Positions 4,186-4,801 of a stretch of 64,000 nucleotides of DNA are shown here, piece by piece. The position numbers and the translations under genes were made by a program. Under the pieces are notes generated by a model. That model was not told the DNA's origin. It did not search any database and saw nothing but the letters and a program-made list of their open reading frames with translations. How positions within the stretch are numbered: position 1 is the stretch's first letter; every line of letters starts with the position of its first letter. The DNA lies in contig CM049309.1 of the NCBI GenBank assembly GCA_026874595.1, positions 2,144,076-2,208,075 on the forward strand. Direction: 5' to 3'. This stretch comes from Sipunculus nudus (taxonomy: Eukaryota > Annelida > Sipuncula > Golfingiida > Sipunculidae).

Positions 4186-4636
4186 ACCTTGACATTTCTG
4201 TTTGCTACTAACCTTGAAAGTTCTGTTTATTACTGACCTTGACAGTTCTCTCTGTGACTGACCTTGACAATTATCTCTGTGACTGACCTTGACAGTTCTT
4301 TCTGCAACTGACCTTGACAGTTCTGTCTCTGACTGTCTTTGAAAGTTCTGTCTGTTACTCACCTTGACAGTTCTGCCTGTGACTGACCTTCACAGTTCTG
4401 TCTGTTACTGACCTTGACAGTTCTGTCTGTGACTGACTTTGATAGTTCTGTCTGTTACTGACCTTGACAGTTCTTTCTGCAACTGACCTTGAGAGTTCTG
4501 TCTGTTACTGACCTTGACAGTTTTCTCGGTGACTGACCTTGACAGTTCTGTCTGTTACTGACCTTGACAGCTTTGTCTGTTAATGACTTCGAAAGTGTTT
4601 CTGTGACTGGCCTTGACATTTCTGTTTGTTACTGAC
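4186..4636. repeat. 25-bp minisatellite made of exon 11's end plus its splice donor
   Basis: About 18 head-to-tail 25-bp units of type CTGACCTTGACAGTTCTGTC followed by TGTTA. On the minus strand each reads AACTGTCAAG then GTCAG. The last ten bases of exon 11 are AACTGTCAAG and its donor is GTCAGT, so the array copies the exon-intron junction and continues from it without a gap. Seven units keep the 16-base junction intact besides the true one at 4631-4646. Use of a donor 75 bp downstream would keep the frame; a shift of 25 or 50 would not. Confidence 0.93.
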
Positions 4637-4801
4637 CTTGACAGTTCCATCTGTGCTGCCCGTGTATATTCTTGTTTCACTTTGGTCCTGTGCTAGTGTG
4701 GTGATCTCTGAGTTCCCATGTATGTTTGTGAAGCTTTTAACTTTCTGTCCTGTGTCTACCATCCACACAGTTAACGTACCAGTCTGGCATACTGACACCA
4801 C
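4637..4801 (-). CDS. WDR49-like: WDR49/WDR64-like gene, internal exon 11
   Basis: The exon follows CATTTAG and ends ...GTCAAG before the GTCAGT donor. It is exactly 55 codons. It starts [20 protein letters not shown], continues VKSFTNI, then [20 protein letters not shown] and GSTDGTVK. It therefore spans the end of one WD40 blade and most of the next (GH/GN.EI...L.TGS.DGTVK). The last nucleotides and the donor are the template of the 25-bp minisatellite that fills the start of the next intron, so look-alike donors follow immediately. Confidence 0.95.

What the first reader, a model, noticed from the sequence alone, without database searches (positions are those of the whole stretch)
4186..4801. 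Minisatellite built from an exon end plus its 5' splice site (25-bp array)
The sequence shows that the last bases of exon 11 (AACTGTCAAG) and its donor (GTCAGT) are the repeating unit of the array that starts the next intron. The array is contiguous with the true junction. Seven units keep the 16-base junction unchanged. The spliceosome thus faces a ladder of look-alike donors 25 bp apart. A donor 75 bp downstream would add 25 codons in frame; the others would shift frame. Inference: the splice site itself was duplicated and expanded, and copy number may modulate splicing.
Basis: partly seen in the sequence, partly recalled or inferred. Interest (0 to 1): 0.82.

Follow-up and report, generated by a model that had tools for sequence, protein, structure and literature searches.

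The report
Duplicated splice-site minisatellite in peanut worm
The end of one exon of a worm gene, together with its splice signal, has been copied into a row of 25-base repeats inside the neighbouring intron; the same kind of repeat, known before in amphioxus, occurs at other exon edges of this animal and is most likely harmless because splicing hides the extra copies.

Summary
On the minus strand a WD40 exon (4801-4637) ends ...ACAGATGGAACTGTCAAG|GTCAGTA, and the intron opens with 18 further copies of that junction (4636-4181). The exon is the source: an intron-bearing paralog has the same junction (NGTVK|GT) and no minisatellite.

It is not alone. The next donor of the gene (3409) carries a ~100-bp donor array, the acceptor of exon 14 a ~70-bp acceptor array; of 49 sampled myosin exons of the same genome 2 carry a clear and 1 a probable case. 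Scaffold lengths identify the genome as Sipunculus nudus, a sipunculan annelid. Tandem repeats spanning exon-intron boundaries are known in lancelets as 'mirages'; the listings I saw name none outside them. Best reading: neutral, self-masking tandem duplications; a splicing role is untested. New member of a known kind.

The parts
4637..4801 (-).
   Evidence: GT-AG borders and open frame with four neighbouring exons; WD40 matches
4637..4654 (-). 18 exon bases ACAGATGGAACTGTCAAG that are part of the repeated unit (codons T-D-G-T-V-K)
   Evidence: 16 of 18 identical to array copies; 0 of 4000 random 18-mers reach 16
4181..4636 (-). intronic array: 18 copies of the exon-end/donor junction, 25-bp period with one 24-bp step; GT kept in 16 of 18
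   Evidence: TRF; register and copies
4580..4582 (-). in-frame TAA for read-through from the exon, before every intact look-alike GT donor
4357..4362 (-). look-alike donor GTGAGT in one copy (+274), nearer the consensus than the true GTCAGT
   Evidence: sequence; rough matrix score 12.38 against 8.47, matrix recalled
3409..3524 (-). next exon (12), 116 nt, ...LVVGWAK
2743..3408 (-). second donor array: 7 further, partly degenerate copies of GGGCTGGGCCAA|GTATGTAT, mostly about 100 bp apart, AG-rich spacer
   Evidence: 20-mer copies starting 41, 145, 247, 343, 430, 480 and 646 nt into the intron with 16-19 of 20 matches; exon-only local score 40 against a maximum of 25 in 1000 shuffles
21..93 (-). 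exon 13 (YITIFRNQNFRDFHVQPADWKGGQ)
118..989 (-). 27-bp and 39-bp arrays beside the exon-13 acceptor; unit ..TCAGTGTACATAATCAAG resembles TCAG|GTACATAACAA; possible acceptor array, weak
   Evidence: junction local score 20, shuffle P=0.023; exon-only P=0.067
6481..7871 (-). 33-bp array that begins at the 12th base past the exon-9 donor; no sign that it is exon-derived
   Evidence: TRF; exon-only P=0.40, junction P=0.75
7883..8042 (-). exon 9
6119..6276 (-). exon 10

Best explanation
A 25-bp segment made of the last 18 bases of a WD40 exon and the first 7 bases of its intron was tandemly duplicated and grew into 18 extra copies. Growth could be tolerated because the unit carries the splice site: as long as splicing uses the exon-side copy, all further copies lie in the intron and the mRNA is unchanged (self-masking). 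Mis-spliced products meet a stop early and would be targets of nonsense-mediated decay. It is a neutral product of a minisatellite-rich genome, the same kind as the lancelet 'mirages'. Shown: derivation from the junction, direction exon to array, recurrence at other junctions of this gene and genome, stops behind the true donor. Inferred: that the exon-side site is the one used, neutrality, decay of wrong products.
For: Exon-only match 16 of 18 against 0 of 4000 controls. A paralog with the same junction has no minisatellite. No second copy of the array was found in the genome. By frame and homology the coding junction is the exon-side copy in three clear donor arrays (this one, 3409, L040), the probable L038 donor, and two acceptor arrays (exon 14, L036). 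Arrays are not more frequent near exon ends: TRF covers 60/2940 bases at 0-30 nt against 2060/34750 at 300-900 nt in the myosin sample, and 68/660 against 3133/11482 in this gene, while exon interiors have 13/6095 and 0/737. At these four donors a read-through stop (ending 57, 10, 31 and 6 nt into the intron) precedes the first intact look-alike donor.
Against: No RNA data: use of the exon-side donor was not seen. 14 of 18 copies score as high as or higher than the true donor on a rough recalled matrix, so the site itself does not explain the choice; from recall, tandem identical donors in test genes often favour the intron-side one. Donor columns are somewhat better conserved than the rest (P=0.023). 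The exon-edge survey is small and not significant: 5 of 140 edges against 1 of 130 interior windows at 17 of 21 or more, one-sided P=0.125, and one of the 5 (L038) falls to 14 of 21 when the window stops at the exact exon end. Stops before the decoys are partly expected by chance. Neutrality itself was not tested.
Confidence: 0.77

Rival explanations
1. Regulatory decoy ladder: the repeated donors bind U1 and tune the splicing of this intron or trigger decay of the transcript, with copy number as a dial.
For: 16 of 18 copies keep GT, one has GTGAGT; donor columns carry 9 of 55 substitutions where 19.8 are expected, P=0.023.
Against: Every intact look-alike GT donor gives a premature stop, so a stable longer protein is not expected; the paralog has the same junction without a minisatellite; arrays at the myosin junctions have unrelated units; lancelet cases are reported to splice normally (passages of PMC3087553 and PMC3902484).
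Confidence: 0.1
2. Intron-birth intermediate: junction arrays supply cryptic sites from which new introns arise, as proposed for lancelet globins; introns 12 and 13 of this gene were gained this way.
For: Introns 12 and 13, which carry junction arrays, have no counterpart at those positions in the C2 paralog, where WKGGQVHEEDIL is read without interruption. The acceptor-array unit at exon 14 reads EHADDI, by eye, like exon EHSDDV.
Against: The intron with the 25-bp array is shared with the paralog and so is older than the array. Loss in the paralog is equally possible; no outgroup was available.
Confidence: 0.09
3. Chance resemblance or assembly artefact.
For: The window and the fetched flanks are rich in arrays (25% TRF cover of 124 kb), so some array will lie next to some exon; the 33-bp array beside exon 9 is such a case.
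Against: Exon-only match beyond all 4000 controls and all 1000 shuffles; copies differ from each other; the assembly is from HiFi reads (passages of PMC10212961).
Confidence: 0.02

Closest known systems
Mirages: tandem repeats spanning exon-intron boundaries in lancelets (Adh3, globins BflGb6 and BflGb9, troponin C, PGBD5)
   Same: Unit includes exon end and splice signal; at donors and at acceptors; copies within the intron; reported units 10-72 bp (Adh3) and 150-160 bp (globins), here 25, 61, about 70, 82 and about 100. Seen as passages of PMC3087553 and PMC3902484.
   Different: Host is a sipunculan annelid, not a lancelet; several junctions of one gene are affected. Normal splicing and length variation, reported for lancelets, could not be tested here; lack of homogenisation of the edge copy is inconclusive here.
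Human internal tandem repeats at exon-intron boundaries in segmental duplications (PMC2812944)
   Same: Minisatellites of about 30-bp units that alter gene structure, some at exon-intron boundaries, with cryptic splice sites (passages).
   Different: There they elongate exons and introns and some are read as forming novel introns; here the copies lie in an existing intron next to an unchanged exon.
Intron gain by tandem duplication of an AG/GT proto-splice site (Rogers; as cited in PMC3087553)
   Same: Tandem duplication that carries a splice site.
   Different: The intron with the 25-bp array is older than the array (shared with a paralog).

Membership tests
Mirage (junction-spanning minisatellite) | Tandem repeat whose unit spans an exon-intron boundary | tested here: met
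   18 exon + 7 intron bases per unit, 18 copies
Mirage (junction-spanning minisatellite) | Occurs at 5' and 3' intron ends, in several genes of the genome | tested here: met
   Two donors and one acceptor in this gene; in 49 of 75 listed myosin exon matches one clear acceptor (L036), one clear donor (L040) and one probable two-copy donor (L038)
Mirage (junction-spanning minisatellite) | Many copies carry the AG/GT signal | tested here: met
   GT in 16 of 18 copies
Mirage (junction-spanning minisatellite) | Regular mRNA despite the repeats | not testable with these tools
   No RNA reads; only frame and GT-AG support
Mirage (junction-spanning minisatellite) | Length instability between alleles or cells | not testable with these tools
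   One haploid assembly only
Mirage (junction-spanning minisatellite) | Edge copy not homogenised with inner copies | tested here: inconclusive
   True junction differs from the copy consensus at 3 of 25 bases; the 18 copies match it at 12-23 of 25; no tree made
Intron gain by tandem duplication | Intron absent in relatives | tested here: not met
   The intron with the 25-bp array is shared with the C2 paralog; introns 12 and 13 are not shared but their age is unknown

The most novel reading that the evidence does not exclude
Junction-spanning minisatellites are not a lancelet oddity but a general outcome in minisatellite-rich animal genomes; in this sipunculan they sit at a few per cent of exon edges and act as intron nurseries, having produced introns 12 and 13 of this WD40 gene, while the spliceosome reliably picks the exon-side site out of about 15 of equal or better strength by a rule other than site strength.
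Probability: 0.15. Interest if true: 0.75.

Novelty: new member of a known kind. Interest (0 to 1): 0.5.

Why it matters
If the exon-side donor is used, this locus is a natural test of 5' splice-site choice: about 15 donors of equal or better rough score in a row, where strength cannot decide. It extends a phenomenon that I found in print only for lancelets to an annelid, far away in the animal tree, and the distance profile suggests a simple neutral reason: duplications that carry a splice site hide themselves. RNA data could test both points at once.

Tried and rejected
A dispersed satellite as source of the array: not found; the only other genome matches fall in a 43-bp array on C9 at 68-71%. 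The 33-bp array at the exon-9 donor as a junction array: rejected. The 27/39-bp arrays at the exon-13 acceptor: left open, weak. A significant excess of repeats at exon edges: not shown (K=21: at 15 or more 12 of 140 edges against 8 of 130 interior windows, P=0.30; 16: 8 against 2, P=0.065; 17: 5 against 1, P=0.125; 18: 4 against 0, P=0.071). In that call the myosin exon ends are profile-match ends, which overran the donor by about 10 nt in L038 and L040; with the exact end L040 stays perfect (39 of 39 exon bases) and L038 drops to 14 of 21, so L038 is counted as probable only. The one interior hit at 17 is a single, not tandem, match. The field open_frame_aa was first taken for stop-free introns; the fetched loci did not bear this out and it is not used. 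Taxon by molluscan haemocyanin (PF14830): no match and no control genome rang, so uninformative; by myosin in the PDB: squid best, inconclusive; settled by scaffold lengths. Rfam: no match in the window at gathering thresholds. A PF01814 search (hemerythrin) did not complete and was dropped.

Sample: one search listed 75 myosin exon matches; 49 were fetched and tested. The first 5 loci (16 exons) were chosen partly by the open_frame_aa field, the next 20 loci (33 exons) from the rest of the table. All hits (2 clear, 1 probable) are in the first 16 exons and 0 of 33 in the second batch, so the rate is uncertain.

Full report
What is there. The gene lies on the minus strand. Five exons in the window (8042-7883, 6276-6119, 4801-4637, 3524-3409, 93-21) have GT-AG borders and join into one open frame of 224 codons with WD40 repeats; the best match in the PDB that is not a designed protein is WD repeat domain 64, 9fqr_No. 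Two long open frames elsewhere in the genome (986 and 816 codons; L024, L025) are relatives and gave six further exon places of this gene: 52369-52211 and 8481-8413 in the window (the latter weak, E about 0.3) and four beyond the window's first base.

The array. TRF gives 4182-4654, period 25, 19 copies. The copied codons read T-D-G-T-V-K, part of a WD40 repeat.

Direction. An intron-bearing paralog on C2 (L023) has the same phase-0 junction, GGAGCCAGGAATGGCACAGTCAAG|GTAATT, and TRF finds no minisatellite in its 3.2 kb, only an ATT microsatellite. So exon end and intron are older than the array. A genome search with the array found, besides the locus itself, only matches in a 43-bp array on C9 at 68-71%; that search scores only its best candidates.

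Splicing consequences. Intact look-alike donors lie at +74, +99 and so on; the copies at +25 (GC) and +49 are poor on a rough recalled matrix. An in-frame TAA at 4582-4580 stands before all intact ones. The products of +25, +49, +74 and +99, the four that I worked out, end at codon 70, 78, 73 and 73, against 55 codons of the exon. 14 of 18 copies score as high as or higher than the true donor, one (GTGAGT, +274) clearly higher, so strength alone cannot mark the true site.

Recurrence in this gene. Next donor, 3409: 20-mers of the junction recur, starting 41, 145, 247, 343, 430, 480 and 646 nt into the intron, with 16-19 of 20 matches; the exon-only alignment scores 40 against a shuffle maximum of 25. 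Acceptor of exon 14, first exon base at window-relative -50320: arrays of about 70-bp units run from -50293 to -49280, unit ACTGATAACAATGTGTGATTTCTAG|GAACATGCTGATGAT against ACCGATAACAATGTGTGATTTCTAG|GAACACTCAGATGAC; the junction alignment scores 58 against a shuffle maximum of 25, but the exon part alone is not significant (P=0.27). At the other eight junctions of the five exons (donors 9, 10, 13; acceptors 9-13) no exon 18-mer reached 13 of 18 in the neighbouring 1.5 kb.

Recurrence elsewhere. Of 49 myosin exons tested (of 75 listed), two have clear junction arrays. L036 acceptor: 82-bp unit, TRF 5.8 copies, 21 of 21 exon bases in the best copy. L040 donor: copies at +61, +96 and +131, 39 of 39 exon bases. 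L038 donor is probable: one extra copy at +56 with 11 exact exon bases, 14 of 21 by exon alone, 17 of 20 across the junction. All three fall in the first 16 exons examined and none in the next 33. In 22 exon ends of the two intron-bearing paralogs there were none.

Not a hot spot. TRF cover of intron bases is lower next to exon ends than deeper: 60/2940 at 0-30 nt, 244/6797 at 30-100, 946/18558 at 100-300 and 2060/34750 at 300-900 in the myosin sample; 68/660, 350/1540, 1320/4400 and 3133/11482 in this gene. Exon interiors have 13/6095 and 0/737. The paralogs have 0/660 next to exon ends and 134/11094 at 300-900. TRF misses part of the degenerate arrays, and myosin ends are profile ends. The edge test itself gives 5 of 140 edges against 1 of 130 interior windows, P=0.125. 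This fits duplications that strike introns broadly and survive at an exon end only when the unit carries the splice site; no preference for junctions is needed. That last step is inference.

Organism. The assembly holds 1,426,538,692 bases in 153 contigs. PMC10212961 (passages) gives for Sipunculus nudus Chr02 98,497,835, Chr04 97,527,750, Chr07 84,190,596, Chr08 80,869,746, Chr09 79,822,965, Chr13 70,941,565 and Chr16 63,522,239, equal to C2, C4, C7, C8, C9, C13 and C16 here. Of ten lengths compared seven are equal; C3, C5 and C6 are 6 to 9 kb shorter here. The paper's total is 1,426,776,655. It reports 13.24% of the genome as TRF repeats.

What is known. PMC3087553 (passages) describes tandem repeats spanning exon-intron boundaries in lancelet globin genes, uses the name mirages from the Adh3 case, says that they do not seem to disturb regular splicing and that clusters vary in length, and proposes that they give new introns. 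PMC3902484 (passages) adds PGBD5 and names Adh and troponin C. The original Adh paper was looked for by PubMed id and not held. PMC2812944 (passages) treats human repeats, some at exon-intron boundaries. Searches whose listings name no mirage outside lancelets; two searches listed 15 of 36 and 12 of 83 papers, and the library holds open-licence papers only.

Lead on intron gain. The C2 paralog reads through the positions of introns 12 and 13 of this gene and has its own intron at HPD|NMYV instead (read by eye). Gain here or loss there cannot be told apart without an outgroup.

Verdict.

Noticed in passing
16495-20077 and 46655-50640: Two long tandem-array regions with 337-340-bp units that end in the same GACGGACA microsatellite (20047-20077, 50610-50640), like the tails of Helentron-type elements (likeness recalled, not tested).
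   Followed up: no
L002-L007 (window-relative -46899 to -32975): An AACAGACA microsatellite recurs exactly every 1262 bp, 12 times, inside the 50-kb intron 13: a higher-order repeat.
   Followed up: no
L024 (C3:55643450) and L025 (C8:8197121): Two long open frames (986 and 816 codons) related to the window's WD40 gene, the second with EF-hand-like sequence near its start (by eye): probably retrocopies or intronless paralogs.
   Followed up: partly
37177-40666: 86-copy array of a 41-bp unit, 91% matches; not tested for exon overlap.
   Followed up: no
C2:44849337-44852248: Four myosin-head matches in a row to nearly the same stretch of the profile (about 109-153), perhaps mutually exclusive exons (table only).
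   Followed up: no
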